Virus record (IMG/VR): IMGVR_UViG_3300028024_000168
Location: 1 to 38,048 of that record
Length of the DNA: 38,048 nt
Direction: 5' to 3' (one strand)
From: a virus
Below the pieces are notes generated by a model. That model worked only from the letters and a program-made list of their open reading frames with translations, was not told where the DNA came from and searched no databases. A program made the translations under genes and the position numbers. Positions 8,157-38,048 of this stretch are shown here, piece by piece. How positions within the stretch are numbered: the stretch's first letter is position 1; each line of letters begins with the position of its first letter.

Positions 8157-9512
8157 ATGCCGTCATCGCCAAGTGTGCCTTCTGCGCTATCTGCGCCCTC
8201 AGCTATTTCGCTTCCATCGGTGGCTACGACTACCGGCCCAATGCTAACGGCTCTCACAGCAGCTCTGGGCGTCGAACGCTCGATCCTGGCTGGTGACGAT
8301 CAAATCGAGCACGCTTGGTCCAATCTACCACGCTTGCTTTCGCGAGTTCCAATAGAGCAACGGAGCGAGACACTTGTCCGGATGTGTGTGGCGGTGGCAA
8401 CTGGATTATTCGACAGTGCGGTCAACTACGCTTGGAATGCCGCAATTATTGAGCTACGGGATAAAGTTCGACGCTTTGGATTAACGGTTGTACCTCAGAT
8501 AACTGGAAGATCGTTCGATGAAAACGTTCTCATTGACCTTAAAGACGCTGAGCTGCTGCAGCTTTGCTTAAAGCTTAATTTGATATCTGAGGACGGTTAC
8601 TTTCTGCTCGATCAGTGTCGCGACATTCGGAATAACTTTTCGGCGGCACATCCCTCCGTTGGCGTGCTCGACGAGGACGAGTTCGTAAATTTTCTGAACC
8701 GAATTGGTCGGCACGCTCTTGCTAACGAACGCAACCCACGCGGCGTTGATATCCAGGCTTTTATTTCCGCGATAAAAAGCGGCAGATTTAATGATGTACA
8801 ATTTGAAACTTGGCGAAGCCGGGTGGCCGACACTTTTGATGCGCAGCGGGAGCTTTTGTTCGGGACATTACATGGTATATATTGCGATCCCAGTTCTGGT
8901 GAGGAGGCGCGGGTCAATGCTCTGAGGATCTGTGAAGCATTTAGTTCAATAATGACCCCAAAGGCCCAATCAGATTTGGTCAGCCGCCACCAGGACTATC
9001 GCGCAGCCGGGGATGAACCACGACATAGAGCTTCCCAGCAGTTTTTTGAACGGCTTGGTTTCCTGGCACAGCTCGGCGATACGGAGTTGCATAGCGTTAT
9101 CGTGTCAGCGACTAAGAACCTTCTCTCGATCCATGCCGGCTTCAACAATTTCTATAACGAACCCCCATTTGCTGAACGTCTTGCTGGATTGGTGGCACAA
9201 AATCGTGTGCCTGATTCAGCACAACACGAATTTGTAGATGCAGTCGTTACCTGCGCGGCCGGCAATCAATATGGTGTGTCTCATGCGGCGATGCCGACCT
9301 ATGAGAAATTGATCCGATCGTTTTCACCCGCGGAAATCCTGATTATGCTCGGGCTTCCCGCCCAACAAAATGTGGTAGCAAAGCGAGTCCACGCTTATGG
9401 AGGCTGCCGAACCCGTTTCATTAATCTGATCAGATTGCTCGATACAAAGAGCATACCCACACCAGCGCGAGCTGCCTATGATATATGGATGGCAGAAGGT
9501 GCGGCAAGTTAA
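8157..9512 (+). CDS. Cargo protein with HEPN-like Rx6H motif, unknown family
   Basis: This 451-residue protein is not part of the Mu backbone, and its codon use is visibly more AT-rich than its neighbours. It starts with a low-complexity Ser/Pro/Ala stretch (residues 1-28), followed by an all-helical region. Around residues 150-170 it reads LDQCRDIRNNFSAAHPS, with Arg158-Asn and His165 forming an R-x6-H motif of the HEPN RNase type, preceded by an acidic and helical segment. The remaining 270 residues are helical, with no motif I recognise. The ATG is supported by GGGGGAG. HEPN proteins are usually RNases in abortive-infection or toxin systems. HEPN membership here rests on a short motif and context, so it is tentative. 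The next gene carries a second HEPN motif. Confidence 0.75.
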   Translation: MPSSPSVPSALSAPSAISLPSVATTTGPMLTALTAALGVERSILAGDDQIEHAWSNLPRLLSRVPIEQRSETLVRMCVAVATGLFDSAVNYAWNAAIIELRDKVRRFGLTVVPQITGRSFDENVLIDLKDAELLQLCLKLNLISEDGYFLLDQCRDIRNNFSAAHPSVGVLDEDEFVNFLNRIGRHALANERNPRGVDIQAFISAIKSGRFNDVQFETWRSRVADTFDAQRELLFGTLHGIYCDPSSGEEARVNALRICEAFSSIMTPKAQSDLVSRHQDYRAAGDEPRHRASQQFFERLGFLAQLGDTELHSVIVSATKNLLSIHAGFNNFYNEPPFAERLAGLVAQNRVPDSAQHEFVDAVVTCAAGNQYGVSHAAMPTYEKLIRSFSPAEILIMLGLPAQQNVVAKRVHAYGGCRTRFINLIRLLDTKSIPTPARAAYDIWMAEGAAS

Positions 9513-9579
9513 AGTAATTTACCAACGAGAATGATGGCCCAATCCAGGCTTGACGACGAAGGACTATATGGTCCGAGTA

Positions 9580-9620
9580 TGAAATATACTGAAAGCGGTT
9601 CTTATATTTCAGGCATTTTT
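9580..9620 (+). terminator. Terminator-like hairpin between the two cargo genes
   Basis: A 9-bp A/T-rich stem (9580-9588 with 9603-9611) encloses a short inner GAA/TTC stem and is followed by five T residues at 9616-9620. It begins 67 bases after the stop of the upstream cargo gene. The form is that of an intrinsic terminator, though the stem is AT-rich. If it works, the two cargo genes have separate transcripts or an attenuated second gene. Confidence 0.5.
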
Positions 9621-9692
9621 GTTGAATCATGACACGGCGCTTCATATCCGAATGTAACCCCATTTGACACCCTGCTTTCAGGATAACTAGGC

Positions 9693-10721
9693 ATGATAGT
9701 CGAGATTCCAGGGTCCGCAGACTTCAAGAAAACAAGTTTAAATTTATTGAATCTGGCATGGTATATTGCCATCGCTTCTCTTGAAGCATATAGTTTTTCC
9801 GACATCATTCATCCTGTTGATACGCCCGTCCAACATATACCCGGGATTGATGGAACCCTCCGCACTATCGGTGGCCCAGATACCACATGGAGCCCGCAGG
9901 AAAGGGAGGTTGCCGAACAACAATACTGGCGCCGATCCCAGCCAGCGCTTGCGAACGCACTTTCTCTTATCCAACAAGCAATTGAGATGGCGCTTAAGGG
10001 ACAGATTGCCGAAATCTCACCATTTCTTCTGATCGCTCGTGACGCTCGTGATTATCCGACCAAAAGTGCTCAGCAGGATGTGTCATTTTCAGCCTTCCGC
10101 AGCCTTGATGCTGCAGACTTGCTGAAAGTCCACAACACCGTCTGCTCTGAACGTCTCGACGACAAATTTGAAGGATTTTGGAACTCGATTCGGCGGCAGA
10201 GAAACGTCTTCATTCATTCGGTAGTCCCAATCTCAGAAGTATTAAAGCCAACAGATCTCATTGAGAAAATTCTCCTCACAGTTCGCACAATGCATCGCGA
10301 GCAAGAGTGGTTTGGGCACCGGGTAGAGTATTGTCAAAAGGATGAAATCGAAGCGGCTTTCAGTACCGACTCGGGCAGTCGGTTTGGCAGGGTTCTTCAA
10401 GAATTTGAGATTGTATTTCATTACCTTTCGAGCAAAGCCCTTCGAGAATATTTTGGGCTGGACCGCCGTCGGCGTACCTATATGTGCACCCACTGTATGA
10501 AGGAGTGTGATTCAGATATTTGGAACGATCTGCATCAGCATTTTGCTCAGTTCGACGGCAAAGATCCTTCTTCGTCAGCTGTTAAATGTGCTTTGTGCGC
10601 AAGAAGTATTAAGATATTCCGTGGCCAATGCATGGACAAGGAATGTAAATCGTCCGTGTTGTGCGATGACGTAGAGTATGGTCGTATTTGTTTGATCTGC
10701 GGAATAGGTCAGTCCGATTAA
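9693..10721 (+). CDS. Cargo protein with HEPN RNxxxH motif and zinc-ribbon-like tail
   Basis: This 342-residue protein is in the same low-GC block. Residues about 165-180 read SIRRQRNVFIHSVVP, giving Arg170-Asn171-x3-His175, the canonical HEPN RNase motif, in a helical context after a long predicted-helical N-terminus. The C-terminal 80 residues are Cys-rich: a pair in CTHCMKEC, then KCALCARS, GQCMDKEC, VLCDD and ICLICG, consistent with one or two zinc ribbons that could bind nucleic acid or protein. The start is supported by AGGA nine bases upstream. It resembles no Mu morphogenesis protein. A plausible role is a phage-encoded defence or toxin RNase, possibly acting with its neighbour. Confidence 0.75.
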   Translation: MIVEIPGSADFKKTSLNLLNLAWYIAIASLEAYSFSDIIHPVDTPVQHIPGIDGTLRTIGGPDTTWSPQEREVAEQQYWRRSQPALANALSLIQQAIEMALKGQIAEISPFLLIARDARDYPTKSAQQDVSFSAFRSLDAADLLKVHNTVCSERLDDKFEGFWNSIRRQRNVFIHSVVPISEVLKPTDLIEKILLTVRTMHREQEWFGHRVEYCQKDEIEAAFSTDSGSRFGRVLQEFEIVFHYLSSKALREYFGLDRRRRTYMCTHCMKECDSDIWNDLHQHFAQFDGKDPSSSAVKCALCARSIKIFRGQCMDKECKSSVLCDDVEYGRICLICGIGQSD

Positions 10722-15240: not shown

Positions 15241-16746
15241 ATGGCCGACGAAGCCCCGAAGCCCGAATCATCGGCGCGGACGGCGCCCGGCGTGCTCGGC
15301 GCCGAAGTCGCGAATGTGCTGCGCAACGTTTATGTGCGGCCGTTCGCCGGCATCCTCTATCCGTTCGACCCGACCCTGCGCACGCGCGGCGGCGGCTGGG
15401 ACTACCAGATCTATGAGCGGGCCGAGGAAGATCCGCGCGTCTACGCCATGCTGCAGAAGCGCAAAGGGGCGCTCGCGGCCTATCCCATCCAGCTCGATGC
15501 CGCCTCGGAAGATCCGGTCGACGTCGCGGCGAAGGAGCTGGTCGAGCGGGCCTTGAAGCTCTTTCCGTTCCAGCGCGTGGTGAAGGATCTGCTCGACGCG
15601 GTCATGAAGGGCTTCGCCGTCGACGAGATCATGTGGAGCGTGGTCGATGGCGAGATCATGCCAACCGGCGCCTATCGCCGCGATCAGCGCCGCTTCCGCT
15701 TCGGCGAGGATTACTCGCTGCGCCTGATCGACTGGCAGAACCTGCTGCTTGGTCTGCCGGTGCCCGACCGCAAGTTCATCGTGCACAGCTTCGACCGCCA
15801 TGACGGCGACCCCTATGGCCGCGGTCTCGGCCGCATGCTGTTCTGGAAATGGCTGTTCAAGCGCCAGAACGAGGCGAGCTGGCTGATCCATAACGAGAAG
15901 TTCGCGAGCCCGACCGTCCATGGCAAGCATGACCCGGAAGCCAGCGAGCAGACCAAGGAAGCGCTGCTCGCCTCCTGCTCGGCGGTGGCGCTCGAGACGG
16001 CGATCATCACCGACAGTAACACCGAAATCGAGTTGCTCGAGGCGGAAGGGCGCGGTGCCGGCGACACCTATGCCGCCTTCAAGGACAGCCAGAACGACGA
16101 CATCACCGAGATCGTGCTCGGCGCCACCTTCACCGCCGCCTCGGGCGGGCTCGACGGCGCCAGCGGCGCCGATGCCGACACCGACGACCGGCTTGAACTG
16201 GCGAAGTCCGACGCCGGCGACTTGGCTGAGACACTCAACGGCACGCTGGTCAAATGGATCGTCGAGCTGAATTTGCCGGCCGCTCGGCCGCCGACGCTCC
16301 GATGGCTGATCGATGCCGAGGAGGATCTGACGGCACGGGCGGCGATCGACGACAAGATCCGTACCTGGGGCTACAAGCCGACCTTGGCCTATGTGCAGGA
16401 GAAGTATGGCGGCGAATGGGTCGAGGCGGCAGCGCCGCCGGCACCCGATCCGTTCGCGCAGGATAGTCCTGCGCCGGCATCCTTCGCCGAAGGCAGCACC
16501 CCACCGGGCGTGCTCGCCGTCTCGGCCTTCGCCCAGCGCGGCACCGACCAGGTGCGCTCGACCATCGACGGCTGGGTCGGCCAGGTCCGCCAGCTCATGG
16601 GCCAGGCCGGCTCGATCGAGGAGCTGCGCGACCGGCTGATCGAGCTGTACCCGTCGATGTCCGGCGCGATGTTCGCCGAGGTCATGAGCGAGGCGCTGCA
16701 GGTCGGCGATCTCGCCGGCCGTTACGAGGCCGGCCGTGGCCGATGA
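15241..16746 (+). CDS. Portal protein (DUF935, Mu gp29-like)
   Basis: The 501-residue protein matches the DUF935 portal family, with ERAEEDPRVYAMLQKRKGAL near the N-terminus, a conserved QRRFRFGEDYSLRLID segment, and YGRGLGRMLFWKWLFKR in the clip/wing region. Portals form the 12-subunit ring that terminase docks on and that DNA passes through. The C-terminal 100 residues are Pro/Ala-rich then helical. Position between terminase and MuF is as in Mu. It starts two bases after the terminase stop. Confidence 0.93.
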   Translation: MADEAPKPESSARTAPGVLGAEVANVLRNVYVRPFAGILYPFDPTLRTRGGGWDYQIYERAEEDPRVYAMLQKRKGALAAYPIQLDAASEDPVDVAAKELVERALKLFPFQRVVKDLLDAVMKGFAVDEIMWSVVDGEIMPTGAYRRDQRRFRFGEDYSLRLIDWQNLLLGLPVPDRKFIVHSFDRHDGDPYGRGLGRMLFWKWLFKRQNEASWLIHNEKFASPTVHGKHDPEASEQTKEALLASCSAVALETAIITDSNTEIELLEAEGRGAGDTYAAFKDSQNDDITEIVLGATFTAASGGLDGASGADADTDDRLELAKSDAGDLAETLNGTLVKWIVELNLPAARPPTLRWLIDAEEDLTARAAIDDKIRTWGYKPTLAYVQEKYGGEWVEAAAPPAPDPFAQDSPAPASFAEGSTPPGVLAVSAFAQRGTDQVRSTIDGWVGQVRQLMGQAGSIEELRDRLIELYPSMSGAMFAEVMSEALQVGDLAGRYEAGRGR

Positions 16747-17962
16747 GCCGGTAACGCCGGAATACGCCGCCCTGCCGTTCCAGGAGGCGGTCGAGTTCTT
16801 CCGGCAGAAGGTCAACGTCCCGTCCGCCAAATGGGCCGACGTCCTCGGCGGTGCCCATGCCCGCGCCTTCACCGTCGCCGGCGCCACCAAGGAAGGCATG
16901 CTCGCCGACTTCCGCACGGCGATCGACAGCGCCATCGCCGACGGCACCACGCTCGACACCTTCCGCAAGGGCTTCGACGACATCGTCCAGCGCTATGGCT
17001 GGGACTACAAGGGCGGCCGGGCCTGGCGGACGCGCACCATCTTCGAGACCAACCTCTCGACCGCCTATGCCGCCGGCCGTTATGCGCAGATGACCGACCC
17101 GGACGTGGTCCGGCTCAATCCCTATTGGCGCTACCGGCATTCCGACAACGTCAAGCATCCCCGGCCGGAGCATCTGGCCTGGGACGGGCTCGTGCTGCGC
17201 CATGACGATCCGTGGTGGTCAACGCACATGCCGCCCAATGGCTGGGGCTGCCAATGCTCGGCCGAGCCGCTGTCGGAACGAGAGCTGAAGGCGTTGGGCA
17301 AGAACGGTCCCGATCGGGCGCCGGCGTCGGACATGCGGCCGGCCACCCTCAACACCTCGGCCGGGCCGGTCACCATTCAGGTGCCCAAGGGCGTCGATCC
17401 CGGCTGGGGCTACAGCGTCGGCGAGGCGGCCTCGGGCAAGAAGCTCGCCGAGCTGCAGATGGATGCCTGGCGCGCAGAGGGCGAGGCCGCCTGGGAGAGC
17501 TTGACGCCGGGGGATTGGGCAAGCGCTGGCAGGCCGAAGGCGCTGCCGGTGGATGAGGCCGCAGCGTCGCCGGCGTCGGCCCCGGTCGGGCTGCAGGCGG
17601 CGATCGAGCGCGCGATCGGCGGCTCAACCGCAGCACTGCCATTGCCGACCGGCGATACCGTGCAGATCGATGCCGCGGCACTAGCCGCGCACCTGCCGGC
17701 CGGCCAGGCGCGATTCGTGCCGCTGCTGCCCGAGCTGCTGCGCGACCCGGCCGAGATCTGGCTGCGGTTCGAGCGGCACAAGGGCACGGGCAAGGTTGTG
17801 TTGCGGCAGCGGCTGATCAAGCTGCTGCGGTTTGCCGATCGGCAAACGGTCGCGATGGTGCTGCAGGCGAGCGGCGGCAGTCTCGATACCTGGACGGTGC
17901 TGCACGATCTCGACCAGCTGCAGGCTCAGCGGGCCGGGCATTTGCTGTGGGCGCGACCGTGA
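16736..17962 (+). CDS. Head morphogenesis protein (MuF, gp30-like)
   Basis: This 408-residue protein carries the phage Mu protein F domain: RAWRTRTIFETNLSTAYAAG, the WRYRHSDNVKHPRPEH segment and the signature HMPPNGWGCQCSAEPLS with paired cysteines. MuF proteins are minor head proteins needed for assembly and often enter the host with the DNA. A C-terminal part (about 270-408), after a Pro/Ala linker, contains a beta-rich unit with FERHKGTGKVVLRQRLIK, which resembles the barnase/EndoU-colicin/phage-Mu-F-like C-terminal nuclease-fold extensions and may be a separate domain. The GTG start overlaps the portal end by 11 bases. Confidence 0.92.
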   Translation: MADEPVTPEYAALPFQEAVEFFRQKVNVPSAKWADVLGGAHARAFTVAGATKEGMLADFRTAIDSAIADGTTLDTFRKGFDDIVQRYGWDYKGGRAWRTRTIFETNLSTAYAAGRYAQMTDPDVVRLNPYWRYRHSDNVKHPRPEHLAWDGLVLRHDDPWWSTHMPPNGWGCQCSAEPLSERELKALGKNGPDRAPASDMRPATLNTSAGPVTIQVPKGVDPGWGYSVGEAASGKKLAELQMDAWRAEGEAAWESLTPGDWASAGRPKALPVDEAAASPASAPVGLQAAIERAIGGSTAALPLPTGDTVQIDAAALAAHLPAGQARFVPLLPELLRDPAEIWLRFERHKGTGKVVLRQRLIKLLRFADRQTVAMVLQASGGSLDTWTVLHDLDQLQAQRAGHLLWARP

Positions 17963-18468
17963 ACAGTAGCGTCGGCGTCAGGATCACCGTCACCGACAAG
18001 GAGATCCGCGAGGCGCTCACCCGCCTGGCCGAGAAGGATGGTGGGCTCGTTCGAGTCGCCCTCAAGAATATCGGCCAGGCGCTGCTGAAATCGACGCGCG
18101 CCCGATTCGATAGCGAGACGGCGCCGGACGGATCGCATTGGAAGCCGCTGAACCCGGAATACAAGCAGGGCAAGCGGGGCTTGAAGATCCTGCAGGGCGC
18201 CGGAGTCGCCGGCGGGCTGCTGGGCTCGATCAATGCGCGCGTGACCGGCAACCGGCTGGAGATCGGGACCAACAAGGTCTATGCGGCGATCCATCAGTTC
18301 GGCGGGGTGATCGTGCCGAAGCGCTATCCGGCTTTGGTGTTCAGGATCGGCGGCAAGCTCGCGTTTGCCAGAAAGGTGACGATACCGGCGCGGCCGTTCT
18401 TGGGGGTTTCGGCGGGAGATCGGAAGATGGCACTGGAAGTGGCGGGCCGTATCGCCACCCTTAAATAA
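17959..18468 (+). CDS. Virion morphogenesis protein (gpG-like, Mu gp31)
   Basis: The 169-residue protein shows the phage virion morphogenesis family pattern: a helical start, LKNIGQALLKSTRARFDSET then PDGSHWKPLNPEY, GLLGSINARVTGN, and IPARPFLGVSAGD near the end. In Mu the G gene product is a tail-completion/virion assembly protein. GTG at 17959 overlaps the previous stop (GTGA), as elsewhere here; an in-frame GTG at 17947 is the alternative. In Mu the next genes are the protease and capsid, but here a cargo gene intervenes. Confidence 0.9.
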   Translation: MNSSVGVRITVTDKEIREALTRLAEKDGGLVRVALKNIGQALLKSTRARFDSETAPDGSHWKPLNPEYKQGKRGLKILQGAGVAGGLLGSINARVTGNRLEIGTNKVYAAIHQFGGVIVPKRYPALVFRIGGKLAFARKVTIPARPFLGVSAGDRKMALEVAGRIATLK

Positions 18469-18612: not shown

Positions 18613-18618
18613 TATAAT
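18613..18618 (+). promoter_or_regulatory. Consensus -10 box for the ATPase-nuclease cargo gene
   Basis: A perfect TATAAT sits 39 bases before the ATG at 18657, in an AT-rich stretch that breaks from the backbone. A -35 is less clear: GACATT at 18590-18595 gives a 17-bp spacing. With GGGAGG at 18645-18650, six bases before the start, the cargo gene appears to have its own expression signals. The rest of 18469-18612 is non-coding. Confidence 0.55.
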
Positions 18619-18656: not shown

Positions 18657-20717
18657 ATGCATCTTGCTCACCTAGTGATTCGGAATCTTCGGGCGCTGAC
18701 AGACATAGATTTCCCCCTCAGCTCCCGAGTTAACGTTATCGTCGGGCCGAACGCGGTGGGTAAGACAACCATACTGCAAGCTGTACGTCTGGCGAAAGCC
18801 ATACTAGCCCCACGGACACAAAATGAAACGCAGCAAGTCCTTATCTCGCTGGGCGCTGCTTCCCCACATTTTCCACAAAGGTTATTCCTTAATAGCCTCG
18901 CGAGAGAAATCACGCAGCCGGTTGAGATCCGTTGTACCTATGCCCTGCTCGATGAAGAGATTGCTATCTTGCGATCCTCCATGCCATCACTGGTACAAAG
19001 TGTTGTTGCTTCAAGGATCGGACAAGCTTTTGCGAATCCAGCGATCTTGCTTCAGTTTATGCAATCTTCTGAGGGCCAAACGGCAATCACAGCAACTACG
19101 ATCGAAGTTAGCGGGGTCCTATCTCGGCTGGAGTCTGATAAGTCTCTAGTACTTGGTGTGTCAATGAATGGTGCTACAGGACAGATTATTGCATCTGACC
19201 CGCTCGCCGGCGCAATGATTGCCTTCCTTGATCAAAGACTCCCACCCTCTATCTCGCTTTTCTCGTTCTTCCCTGCTGATAGAGCGCTTCCAATGGGCGA
19301 GGTAAATCTTCAACTTGGAGGCCCCGATATGCAGCAACAAATGGAGGCCCATAACTCGCAGCCACAACTAAAATATCTTCGCCTAAAAAACCTTATTATT
19401 AATTCACTTGTCGTGACTGGAACTGAGCGTGATGATCTTCAGGGTGAATTCGAAACAATATTCTCCGGATTACTGGCCGGCCGCAAGATAAAGCTCATAA
19501 ACGTAAACGAACTCGGGTTGCTTTCGGTCATTACGGAAGAAATATCTACAGGCCGCTTGATTGAACTGGACAGCTTGAGCAGTGGCGAAAAAAATATCGC
19601 ACTAACGTTTTTGATTGTGGCGCGCTCCATCGCAAAGGGGGGTGTAGCCTTATTTGATGAGCCAGAGCTACATCTCAATCCCGCAGTGGCAAAGGATGTT
19701 CTACCATTTATCATAAATCAGTATGCCATACCAAAAGACATTCAGTTTATCATGTGCACTCATTCTCCGGAAATACTTTCGGGAGCGTTTGGAAATGAGG
19801 ACTGCGCGCTTTTACACTTAAAGTCAGCCTCGGTCATCTCGCGAGTAGGAAGGAGAGCTCTTGATGAATACGCAGACGCGCTCCAACGTCTCGGAACGTC
19901 AGTTAGCGAAAGCCTTCTCTACGAAGGAACTGTGTTAGTGGAAGGCGATGACGATGTAGCCTTTCTGGAAGGTGGTTTCCCTGAGATCTTCAGAAAATAC
20001 AAAGTTAAAGATCGAGGCGGCCGACGAGAAATAGAGAAAACGATCGCTGATCTCCAAGCTATGGAAGGTAGGGGGGAAAAGGTCGCGCCCATATTCCTTA
20101 TCTTTGACCGTGATGAAGAGCCAACTGGTCTAAAATCTTCGGCTGCAGTTCGAGTTATGCAGTGGACCCGGCGATGTGTCGAGAACTACATGATCGATCT
20201 AGATGTAATTGCGGACCTGCTGAAGGATTCGTCCGTTACTAGAAGGCCGATCAGCAGTGAGGGCGAAGCTCATAAATTAACGCGAGAACTCGCCCAGAAG
20301 CAGTTGCTACTAGTGGCTGCGAGGGACACTTTTAACAGCTATGGTTATCTTAATCCTTGCCTTACGAAAGAGGATTTACAGATGGGAGATTTAGAATCGC
20401 TTGGAAGCGCCTTCTACGATCGAATTTCTACAGCTCGTGCGTCTATCCCAGACAGCCCCAAGGATGCGTGGATTGCTCAATTTGAGAAGAACGTTAACGA
20501 GCGCAAGCAGGCTCTGCATTTGGTTTGGGATAGTAAGTGGAGAGATCTCTGCGATGGGAAGAAATTGATATCGGACTTGCATAAAGCTGCGGATTTGAGA
20601 ATGTCGGAGTCCGCCTTCAAAGCCCGAATTACGCAAAGAATGCGTGATACATCTTCAGACTTGTGGAGAGTGGTTAAGGGTATCTTGGAGGACTTTATGA
20701 AGCGGCCGGCAGGGTAG
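18657..20717 (+). CDS. ABC-type ATPase fused to TOPRIM/DUF4435-like nuclease (OLD/PARIS-like)
   Basis: This 686-residue cargo protein begins MHLAHLVIRNLRALTDID, typical of SMC/RecF-like ATPases. It has Walker A at residues 30-38 (GPNAVGKTT), an ABC signature at 307-311 (LSSGE), Walker B at about 330-335 (LFDEPE, Asp334-Glu335) and a switch histidine in MCTHSPE. The C-terminal third has Glu429 with Asp431-433 (VEGDDDVAF) and Asp484-x-Asp486 (IFDRDEE), the acidic pattern of TOPRIM nucleases, then WTRRCVENYMIDLDVI as in DUF4435. OLD nucleases and the AriA+AriB pair of PARIS share this build; a fused AriA-AriB would have about this length. Both are anti-phage systems. The start is set by GGGAGG six bases upstream; an ATG at 18624 lacks support. 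Codon use is far less GC-rich than the backbone. Confidence 0.85.
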   Translation: MHLAHLVIRNLRALTDIDFPLSSRVNVIVGPNAVGKTTILQAVRLAKAILAPRTQNETQQVLISLGAASPHFPQRLFLNSLAREITQPVEIRCTYALLDEEIAILRSSMPSLVQSVVASRIGQAFANPAILLQFMQSSEGQTAITATTIEVSGVLSRLESDKSLVLGVSMNGATGQIIASDPLAGAMIAFLDQRLPPSISLFSFFPADRALPMGEVNLQLGGPDMQQQMEAHNSQPQLKYLRLKNLIINSLVVTGTERDDLQGEFETIFSGLLAGRKIKLINVNELGLLSVITEEISTGRLIELDSLSSGEKNIALTFLIVARSIAKGGVALFDEPELHLNPAVAKDVLPFIINQYAIPKDIQFIMCTHSPEILSGAFGNEDCALLHLKSASVISRVGRRALDEYADALQRLGTSVSESLLYEGTVLVEGDDDVAFLEGGFPEIFRKYKVKDRGGRREIEKTIADLQAMEGRGEKVAPIFLIFDRDEEPTGLKSSAAVRVMQWTRRCVENYMIDLDVIADLLKDSSVTRRPISSEGEAHKLTRELAQKQLLLVAARDTFNSYGYLNPCLTKEDLQMGDLESLGSAFYDRISTARASIPDSPKDAWIAQFEKNVNERKQALHLVWDSKWRDLCDGKKLISDLHKAADLRMSESAFKARITQRMRDTSSDLWRVVKGILEDFMKRPAG

Positions 20718-21036: not shown

Positions 21037-22155
21037 ATGCAGCAATTCGAGATCTTCAAGGCCGGCACCCACACCGCGGTAAGCGGCGCCACCATCGCCT
21101 TCAGCACCACCGACCTGGCCGATGCCGTCGCCGCCTATGATCCGGCGCTGCATGAGGCGCCGCTGGTGGTCGGTCATCCGGCGATGGACGCGCCGGCCTA
21201 TGGCTGGGTCCAGTCGCTGAAGCTCGCTGGCGACCGTCTGGTGGCGGTGCCGCAGCAGGTCGATACGGCCTTTGGCGAACTGGTGCAGGCCGGCCGCTTC
21301 AAGCAGCGCAGCGCCAGCTTCTATCCGCCCGATCACCCGGCCAACCCCAAGCCCGGCCATTGGTATCTGAAGCATGTCGGCTTCCTCGGCGCCGCCGCTC
21401 CGGCGGTGAAGGGCTTGAAGCCGGTGGCGTTCGGCGAGATCGAGGGCACGCTCGACTTCGCCGACTGGCAGGGCCTGGCCGTCGCCGGCCTGTTCGGCAA
21501 GCTTCGGGATTTCTTCATCGCGCAGTTCGGCCAGGACAAGGCCGATGCGGTGCTGCCGAGCGACGCCATCGACAGCCTCAAATTCGACGCCGCCCAGCCC
21601 GATTGCGATCCGGCGCCGGCAGACCCCACCCCTTCCTATGCGGAGAACCCCAGGATGACCGTGACCAACCCGGCCGGCGCCGTGCCGACCGAGGCCGAGC
21701 TGCGGGCGCGTGCCGACAAGCTCGCCGCCGACGAAAAGAAGCACGCAGCCAACGAGGCCGCCTTCGCCGAGCTGCAGCGTACCGTGCGCTCCGCCCAGAT
21801 CGTGACCCTGGTCGACGGTCTCGTTGCCGGCCGCAAGCTGCCCTCGGGTGAGAAGGCCGGCCTGATCGCCTTCATGGAAGCGCTGCCGGCCGGCGACCAC
21901 GTGATCGAGTTCGCCGAAGCCGGCGGCAAGACCGCCAAGCTGGCGCCGTTGGACTACCTTAGCGGCCTCTTCGCCCGCCTGCCGAACCTGGTGCATTTCG
22001 GTGAGGTGGCGCCGGCGCTCGATCCCGTGAACTTCGCCGAGGATGCCAACAGCATCACGACGCTGTCGCAGCGCTACATCGCCGAGCAGAAGGCGATCGG
22101 CCGGACGGTCTCGCCGGCCGAGGCGGTCTCGCATGTGACGAGGGCTCGGCGATGA
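21037..22155 (+). CDS. I: Prohead protease with C-terminal scaffold (Mu gpI-like)
   Basis: The 372-residue protein matches the Mu I-type protease: N-terminal FEIFKAGTHTAVSGATIAFS, then LVVGHPAMDAPAYGWVQSLK, FKQRSASFYPPDHPANPKPG and YLKHVGFLGAAAPAVKGLKP. The conserved His in GHP and Ser in RSAS are likely active-site residues by analogy with Mu I and related serine proteases. After residue 200 an Ala/Glu/Lys-rich helical scaffold segment begins (ELRARADKLAADEKKHA). The enzyme processes the scaffold and matures the prohead. It is the first gene after the candidate late promoter. Confidence 0.92.
   Translation: MQQFEIFKAGTHTAVSGATIAFSTTDLADAVAAYDPALHEAPLVVGHPAMDAPAYGWVQSLKLAGDRLVAVPQQVDTAFGELVQAGRFKQRSASFYPPDHPANPKPGHWYLKHVGFLGAAAPAVKGLKPVAFGEIEGTLDFADWQGLAVAGLFGKLRDFFIAQFGQDKADAVLPSDAIDSLKFDAAQPDCDPAPADPTPSYAENPRMTVTNPAGAVPTEAELRARADKLAADEKKHAANEAAFAELQRTVRSAQIVTLVDGLVAGRKLPSGEKAGLIAFMEALPAGDHVIEFAEAGGKTAKLAPLDYLSGLFARLPNLVHFGEVAPALDPVNFAEDANSITTLSQRYIAEQKAIGRTVSPAEAVSHVTRARR
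21655..22155 (+). CDS. Internal in-frame scaffold product (Mu Z-like)
   Basis: In Mu the scaffold Z is made from an internal start in gene I and shares its C-terminus. Here an ATG at codon 207 (21655), opening with MTVTNPAGAV, lies right after the protease domain, and GGAG at 21642-21645 is nine bases upstream. It would give a 166-residue protein made of the coiled-coil-like scaffold region. The junction between a Pro/Asp-rich linker and this Met supports the internal start, but expression is inferred. Confidence 0.6.
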   Translation: MTVTNPAGAVPTEAELRARADKLAADEKKHAANEAAFAELQRTVRSAQIVTLVDGLVAGRKLPSGEKAGLIAFMEALPAGDHVIEFAEAGGKTAKLAPLDYLSGLFARLPNLVHFGEVAPALDPVNFAEDANSITTLSQRYIAEQKAIGRTVSPAEAVSHVTRARR

Positions 22156-37253: not shown

Positions 37254-38048
37254 ATGGTGTCGAGTCAAAGAGTTCAACCCGTTGCCGCCTATATCGGCGG
37301 CAAGAGCAAGCTTGCCGCCCGGATCATCCAGCGAATCGAGGCGATCCCGCACGATCTCTATGCCGAGCCCTTCGTCGGCATGGGCGGGGTGTTCCTGCGC
37401 CGCGAGCGCCCGGCCAAGGTCGAGATCATCAACGACCGCTCGCGCGACGTGGCGACTCTGTTCCGCATCCTGCAGCGCCACTTCCCGCAGTTCCTCGACG
37501 TGCTCAAATGGCAGCTCACCAGCCGGGCCGAGTTCGAGCGGCTCGCCACCGTCGATCCCATGACGCTGACCGATCTGGAGCGCGCAGCGCGGTTCCTCTA
37601 TCTGCAGCGCACCGGCTTCGGCGGCAAGGTCGCGGGCCGGAACTTCGGGATCAGCCGGACGGGGCCGGCACGGTTCGATCTGACCAAGCTGGTGCCGCTG
37701 CTCGAAGCCGTGCATGAGCGGCTGTCGGCGGTGACGATCGAGTGCCTGCCCTATGAGGAGTTCATCCGGCGCTACGATCGGCCGGGGGCGTTGTTCTATC
37801 TGGACCCACCATATTACGGGTCCGAGGATGACTATAGCGACACAGGCGACCTGTTCTCGCGGCTCGACTTCGGCCGGCTCGCCATGCTGCTCCAGACCGT
37901 CAAGGGCAAGGCGATCGTCTCGATCAACGATCATCCGGCCATACGTGCGGCATTCGCTGGGTTCGAGATCGAGGAGGTGGAGACGAGCTATACGATAAGG
38001 GGCAACGGCCGCGCGAAGCGGGTCGGCGAATTGATCTTTTCGCGATGA
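37254..38048 (+). CDS. D12-class adenine-specific DNA methyltransferase (Dam-like)
   Basis: The 264-residue protein has the D12-class motifs: AAYIGGKSKL at residues 11-20 (motif X), AEPFVGMGGVF at 37-47 (motif I, S-adenosylmethionine binding), and DPPYY at 184-188 (motif IV, catalytic). A target-recognition part lies between, including QRTGFGGKVAGRNFG. It would methylate adenine N6, perhaps in GATC, protecting phage DNA from restriction or affecting regulation. In Mu the right end carries mom, another DNA modification gene, so the place is functionally matched. No good ribosome site precedes the ATG. The gene is complete and ends the window. Confidence 0.92.
   Translation: MVSSQRVQPVAAYIGGKSKLAARIIQRIEAIPHDLYAEPFVGMGGVFLRRERPAKVEIINDRSRDVATLFRILQRHFPQFLDVLKWQLTSRAEFERLATVDPMTLTDLERAARFLYLQRTGFGGKVAGRNFGISRTGPARFDLTKLVPLLEAVHERLSAVTIECLPYEEFIRRYDRPGALFYLDPPYYGSEDDYSDTGDLFSRLDFGRLAMLLQTVKGKAIVSINDHPAIRAAFAGFEIEEVETSYTIRGNGRAKRVGELIFSR

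What the first reader, a model, noticed from the sequence alone, without database searches (positions are those of the whole stretch)
18657..20717. Single-gene ATPase-TOPRIM cargo, possibly a fused PARIS (AriA-AriB) or OLD-like system
One protein joins an ABC-type ATPase (GPNAVGKTT, LSSGE, LFDEPE, THSPE) with a TOPRIM/DUF4435-like nuclease (VEGDDD, DRD, RRCVENY). It is inserted in the middle of the head genes between the gpG-like gene and protease I. PARIS is known to be triggered by phage anti-restriction proteins, and fused forms exist; OLD proteins share the general build. The same prophage ends with a DNA methylase, so it carries both a likely anti-restriction tool and a system of a class that senses such tools.
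Basis: partly seen in the sequence, partly recalled or inferred. Interest (0 to 1): 0.7.

Follow-up and report, generated by a model that had tools for sequence, protein, structure and literature searches.

The report
Single-gene PARIS defence in Mu-like prophage
A Mu-like bacterial virus carries, between two of its head-building genes, a one-gene version of the known PARIS antiviral system, in the slot where related Pseudomonas viruses keep their anti-CRISPR genes; the gene type is already known, while its place and how the fused protein is switched on are the interesting parts.

Summary
[quoted passage not shown] It matches PADLOC's fused AriAB (PARIS) model over its whole length (E 1.4e-130); GajA (Gabija's OLD nuclease) scores only 1e-14. 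The nuclease half alone matches AriB/DUF4435 in 4 of 4 relatives, and profile-profile with two-gene AriB gives E 3.7e-8. OLD-TOPRIM appears weakly in only 1 of 4. The catalytic residues are invariant in five homologues. So it is fused PARIS, not OLD or RecF/SMC. Single-gene PARIS was already described (PMC9122126), so this is a new member of a known kind.

The gpG-protease junction is where Pseudomonas Mu-like phages carry anti-CRISPR operons (PMC4704812). In 135 distinct Mu-like loci its median size is 208 bp; only 15 exceed 320 bp, and the window is the largest (2568 bp). Two near-identical phages differ by a ~1 kb insert exactly there. A P2-like prophage carries two-gene PARIS next to its gpS gene, the same family as gpG.

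The proposed link to the prophage's own methylase is unsupported. tRNA cleavage and the trigger are inferred from PARIS. The structure model was unusable.

The parts
18657..20717 (+). fused AriAB (single-gene PARIS), 686 aa
   Evidence: PADLOC AriAB PDLC02981 E 1.4e-130, residues 1-679 on profile 1-693/694; start supported by homologues and the GGGAGGA sequence
18657..19841 (+). AriA-like ABC ATPase half (about residues 1-395)
   Evidence: Pfam AAA_21 E 1e-20 and AAA_15 E 2e-17, both above curated cut-off
18744..18770 (+). Walker A GPNAVGKTT (residues 30-38)
   Evidence: G30 P31 N32 A33 G35 K36 T38 invariant in 5 homologues
19575..19589 (+). ABC signature LSSGE (residues 307-311)
   Evidence: S308 S309 G310 E311 invariant
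19650..19667 (+). Walker B LFDEPE (residues 332-337)
   Evidence: L332 D334 E335 P336 E337 invariant
19758..19772 (+). H-loop THSPE (residues 368-372)
   Evidence: H369 S370 E372 invariant
19860..20714 (+). AriB-like TOPRIM nuclease half (residues 402-686)
   Evidence: alone: PADLOC AriB E 3e-6, DUF4435 E 4e-4 (below Pfam cut-off for this sequence; best relative 1.5e-6), 4 of 4 members for each; profile-profile against two-gene AriB E 3.7e-8
19938..19955 (+). TOPRIM acidic motif VEGDDD (E429, D433)
   Evidence: V428 E429 G430 D433 invariant; aligns with the EGxD motif of two-gene AriB
20106..20114 (+). TOPRIM DxD motif DRD (D484, D486)
   Evidence: invariant; aligns with D-x-D of AriB
20169..20189 (+). 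RRCVENY, the (C/Y)x(I/L)EN motif
   Evidence: C507 E509 N510 Y511 invariant; aligns with YSIEN of AriB
18613..18618 (+). TATAAT, possible -10 of an own promoter, 38 bp before the ATG
   Evidence: read in sequence; promoter-like hits in the region are not above chance, 3 against 2.5 expected, so only a hint
17947..18468 (+). gpG-like tail completion/neck gene, left flank of the cargo
   Evidence: PF05069 E 1e-31; phrog_26
21037..22155 (+). protease I / scaffold gene, right flank of the cargo
   Evidence: phrog_976 E 1.7e-104; relatives in 65 phage records

Best explanation
The gene is a standalone fused PARIS (AriAB) carried as cargo by a Mu-like temperate phage, acquired from a source of lower GC and placed at the junction between gpG and protease I. 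The likely action: in the lysogen the ATPase half (AriA-like) holds the nuclease half (AriB-like TOPRIM) inactive. When a competing phage makes an anti-restriction or DNA-mimic protein, the ATPase half binds it, the TOPRIM half becomes active and cuts host tRNAs, and the infected cell stops growing before the intruder can replicate. Because the two halves are one chain, activation cannot be the physical release of AriB reported for two-gene PARIS; it must be a rearrangement within the molecule or between subunits. Shown here: the fused architecture, family identity, conserved catalytic residues, location and foreign composition. Inferred from known PARIS: anti-restriction trigger, tRNA target, abortive infection. 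Inferred from topology alone: activation without release.
For: Whole-length AriAB match E 1.4e-130, next best families 1e-24 or weaker. C-terminal half alone: AriB and DUF4435 in 4 of 4 members, OLD-like TOPRIM in 1 of 4 at 0.005. Profile-profile against two-gene AriB E 3.7e-8, with the EGxD, GGR/K, DxD and EN motifs aligned. Catalytic residues invariant in five homologues from another phage and from bacteria. Single-gene PARIS fusions are described (PMC9122126). The closest homologue found (54%) sits beside a tyrosine integrase in an unrelated viral contig, as expected of lysogen-expressed cargo. The site is the anti-CRISPR site of Mu-like Pseudomonas phages (PMC4704812; JBD30). In relatives it is normally about 200 bp and sometimes filled, including a pair of near-identical phages that differ by an insert there.
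Against: No activity was tested. The ATPase half is no closer by sequence to solved E. coli AriA (E 5e-5) than to PtuA (5e-8). DUF4435 in the window's own sequence is below Pfam's curated cut-off (20.5 against 27 bits). The structure model was unusable (mean pLDDT 46), so oligomeric state and trigger surface are unknown. The trigger and tRNA target may differ from those of E. coli PARIS.
Confidence: 0.72

Rival explanations
1. It works as a class 1 OLD nuclease: a single-chain ATPase-TOPRIM enzyme that degrades invading DNA, or kills cells whose RecBCD is inhibited, rather than cutting tRNA.
For: Same domain order and single-gene layout; PMC10568477 says it is unclear whether fused AriAB is a separate OLD class or works differently. 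GajA/OLD models match the ATPase half.
Against: The nuclease half matches AriB/DUF4435, not OLD TOPRIM, and GajA models score about 51 bits against 435 for AriAB.
Confidence: 0.13
2. A RecF/SMC-type DNA repair or maintenance ATPase with no defence role.
For: Shared ABC head motifs; weak RecF and SMC_N matches.
Against: SMC_N below its curated cut-off, RecF 37 bits against a cut-off of 172; a complete TOPRIM nuclease is attached and conserved.
Confidence: 0.02
3. The gene mainly serves the phage's own lytic cycle (counter-defence or late-gene function), as anti-CRISPR genes do at this site.
For: It lies at the position of anti-CRISPR operons and between late genes, so read-through in the lytic cycle is possible.
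Against: The family is a growth-arrest system; no anti-CRISPR or Aca-like HTH gene is apparent beside it. A tRNase made late would harm the phage unless held inactive.
Confidence: 0.06

Closest known systems
Single-gene PARIS (AriAB fusion, AAA_21 + DUF4435), Rousset et al. 2022, PMC9122126
   Same: Domain order, full-length profile match, catalytic motifs, single gene
   Different: Carried by a Mu-like phage between gpG and protease; the 2022 paper's E. [quoted passage not shown]
Two-gene PARIS (AriA + AriB) of E. coli
   Same: ABC ATPase plus DUF4435 TOPRIM with the same motif order
   Different: One chain instead of two, so AriB release from AriA (PMC11455837) is not possible as described; trigger untested
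OLD nucleases (P2 Old, T. scotoductus OLD, GajA)
   Same: N-terminal ABC ATPase and C-terminal TOPRIM in one chain
   Different: TOPRIM belongs to the AriB/DUF4435 family; no GajB helicase or retron partner
Anti-CRISPR locus of P. aeruginosa Mu-like phages (e.g. JBD30)
   Same: The same genomic slot, gpG to protease
   Different: Cargo is a large immune gene, not small inhibitors with an Aca regulator

Membership tests
PARIS (AriAB) | ABC-type ATPase (AAA_15/AAA_21) with intact Walker A, signature, Walker B and H-loop | tested here: met
   Pfam AAA_21 and AAA_15 above cut-off; motifs invariant
PARIS (AriAB) | DUF4435/AriB-type TOPRIM nuclease fused or adjacent | tested here: met
   PADLOC AriB 3e-6 and DUF4435 in 4 of 4 members (the window alone is below Pfam's cut-off); hhalign E 3.7e-8
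PARIS (AriAB) | TOPRIM catalytic acids retained (E429; D484, D486) | tested here: met
   Invariant in five homologues; AriB E26 is the residue mutated in PMC12409363, taken as equivalent to E429 by motif, not by direct alignment
PARIS (AriAB) | Activated by an anti-restriction protein such as Ocr | not testable with these tools
   Needs expression tests
PARIS (AriAB) | Cleaves host tRNA (Lys, Thr, Asn) and arrests growth | not testable with these tools
   Needs biochemistry; the equivalents of AriB K60/K64 could not be mapped
PARIS (AriAB) | AriA hexamer holding AriB inactive | not testable with these tools
   Only an unusable model (mean pLDDT 46) was obtained
OLD nuclease family (classes 1-3) | OLD-type TOPRIM domain | tested here: not met
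   OLD-like_TOPRIM in 1 of 4 members at 0.005 and not in the window protein; AriB/DUF4435 in all 4
OLD class 2 (Gabija) | Adjacent GajB helicase | tested here: not met
   Neighbours are gpG and head protease
OLD class 3 (retron effector) | Adjacent reverse transcriptase and ncRNA | tested here: not met
   No Rfam match in the window; neighbours are phage structural genes
Anti-CRISPR operon of Mu-like phages | Small inhibitor genes plus Aca HTH regulator at the gpG-protease junction | tested here: not met
   Same slot, but AriAB is the only sizeable ORF between gpG and the protease and no HTH gene is apparent

The most novel reading that the evidence does not exclude
The fused AriAB is an immune tRNase switched on without release of its nuclease half, a gating mode different from two-gene PARIS; and the gpG-protease junction of Mu-like phages is a general exchange site for immune as well as counter-immune cargo, beyond the known Pseudomonas anti-CRISPR operons.
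Probability: 0.45. Interest if true: 0.55.

Novelty: new member of a known kind. Interest (0 to 1): 0.4.

Why it matters
It places a PARIS-type immune gene in the slot known from anti-CRISPR operons, which suggests that Mu-like phages trade defence and counter-defence genes at one junction. It also gives a compact one-gene system for an open question raised in the literature: how fused PARIS is controlled when its toxin half cannot be released.

Tried and rejected
Single-protein scan of viral contigs found no relatives; alignments later found one. PADLOC-model searches of about 750 genomes in two classes scored only 2-3 candidates per genome, so their few hits and non-hits say little about frequency. 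AlphaFold with a two-sequence alignment gave mean pLDDT 46, so no fold search was run. phmmer and profile searches of the nuclease half against PDB found no real match. The methylase-as-trigger idea was rejected for lack of support. No Rfam RNA or tRNA in the window. The promoter scan was not above chance. The two Nature papers on PARIS structure were not held. My profile for the protease did not reach JBD30's protease, so that locus rests on its gpG match plus the literature.

Full report
What is there. The window is a 38,048-bp IMG/VR virus record with a Mu-like layout: transposase (phrog_310), transposition protein (phrog_296), Gam-like end protection (phrog_491), late activator (Mor/phrog_836), terminase, portal, gpF, gpG, protease, head protein, tail sheath and a D12 methylase at the far end. 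ORF 18657-20717 is open, with a GGGAGGA sequence 5 nt before the ATG, and homologues start at the same residue. Its GC is 48%; the flanking genes are 64-70%.

What family. PADLOC's AriAB model covers it end to end at E 1.4e-130; the next models (AriA 4e-24, PtuA 7e-21, GajA 1e-14) reflect the common ATPase. RecF and SMC matches are weak and below curated cut-offs. The nuclease half by itself matches AriB and DUF4435 in four of four homologues, OLD-like TOPRIM in only one at 0.005. Profile-profile comparison with AriB from five enterobacterial genomes gives E 3.7e-8 over 132 columns, aligning EGxD, GGR/K, DxD and the (C/Y)x(I/L)EN motif. Four of those five have an ATPase gene directly adjacent to AriB; in L187 the corresponding ORFs are broken up. 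The homologues used were L179 (54%, viral contig, beside a tyrosine integrase), Burkholderia stagnalis L176 (44%), L182 (44%) and L178 (38%). L182 lies alone among chromosomal genes with no partner ORF of the PARIS type evident, which fits a single-gene system. Walker A, signature, Walker B, H-loop, E429, D433, D484, D486 and E509-N-Y are invariant. The refuter 'loss of acidic residues in close homologues' is therefore not met.

Where it sits. The gpG-protease junction is where Mu-like Pseudomonas phages keep anti-CRISPR operons (PMC4704812); in JBD30 two small genes lie between gene 34, which matches my gpG profile, and gene 37. I measured this junction in the retrieved Mu-like loci. In the first set it was 47-315 bp in most of 116 loci. 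After adding a second scan and removing duplicates, 120 of 135 loci have 320 bp or less (median 208) and 15 have more; the window is the largest at 2568 bp. Other inserts encode a D12 methylase (L006), a ClpP-like SDH protease (L018), a ferritin-like protein (L084) and unknown proteins, one of which recurs in L163 and L246. L153 and L172 are 97.6-98.5% identical over the genes right of the junction and 91% on its left, yet L153 has about 1 kb more exactly at the junction. The site is thus an exchange point beyond Pseudomonas, although most phages there are empty.

A parallel. In an enterobacterial genome (L189) a two-gene PARIS lies between a tail completion gene of the same phrog_26 family as gpG and genes that read as P2 V, W, J, I and H. 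The P2 gene names are my reading of order and sequence, not a search result. From general knowledge of Mu and P2 (not tested here), both junctions are boundaries between late transcription units, where an insert would do least harm.

How it likely works. In two-gene PARIS, AriA binds Ocr-like proteins, releases AriB, and AriB dimers cut tRNAs (PMC11455837; PMC12409363). Trigger and target are inherited here by inference. Release cannot occur in a fused chain, so activation must be by rearrangement; that step is deduced from topology only. PMC10568477 states that it is unclear whether fused AriAB works like other OLD proteins; the present data show that its nuclease half belongs with AriB, which favours tRNA over DNA as the target without proving it.

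The methylase link. The triggers named in the papers read are Ocr and a structurally different T4 anti-restriction protein with negatively charged surfaces. The methylase at 37254-38048 has pI 9.3 and no small Ocr-like acidic gene is visible.

Limits. The window's host is unknown. Nothing functional was tested. The structure model was unusable. Genome-wide frequency of close relatives could not be measured. The survey of junctions used loci ranked by similarity to a few proteases, so its percentages describe that sample only.

Noticed in passing
window 8157-10721: A second low-GC cargo (43-51%) between the late activator and the following late genes: a 451-aa protein (phrog_27609) and a 342-aa protein with relatives on plasmids of Sphingomonas, E. 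coli and Klebsiella. Both carry an RN-x(4-6)-H-like motif (RNNFSAAH, RNVFIH) of the HEPN RNase kind by eye, so this may be another two-gene defence system.
   Followed up: partly
L189 6252-9028: P2-like prophage in an enterobacterial genome with two-gene PARIS inserted after the gpS tail completion gene, the same family as the gpG that flanks the window's AriAB.
   Followed up: partly
L153 621-1828 versus L172 2794-2989: Two phages 97.6-98.5% identical over the genes right of the gpG-protease junction (91% on the left) differ there by about 1 kb; the insert encodes a 174-aa protein without a Pfam match.
   Followed up: partly
L163 9094-9906 and L246 5118-5930: Similar 270-aa proteins of unknown function (no Pfam match for L163) inserted at the gpG-protease junction of two different Mu-like phages.
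   Followed up: no
window 16736-17962: gpF-like head protein ends in a PBECR2 nuclease-like domain (PF18810, E 7e-16), possibly a virion-borne toxin or effector.
   Followed up: no
L006 7044-7877: A D12 DNA methylase sits at the gpG-protease junction of this phage, whereas in the window the methylase is at the far end.
   Followed up: no
L018 8886-9848: ClpP-like SDH-type serine protease as cargo at the same junction, in a low-GC insert.
   Followed up: no
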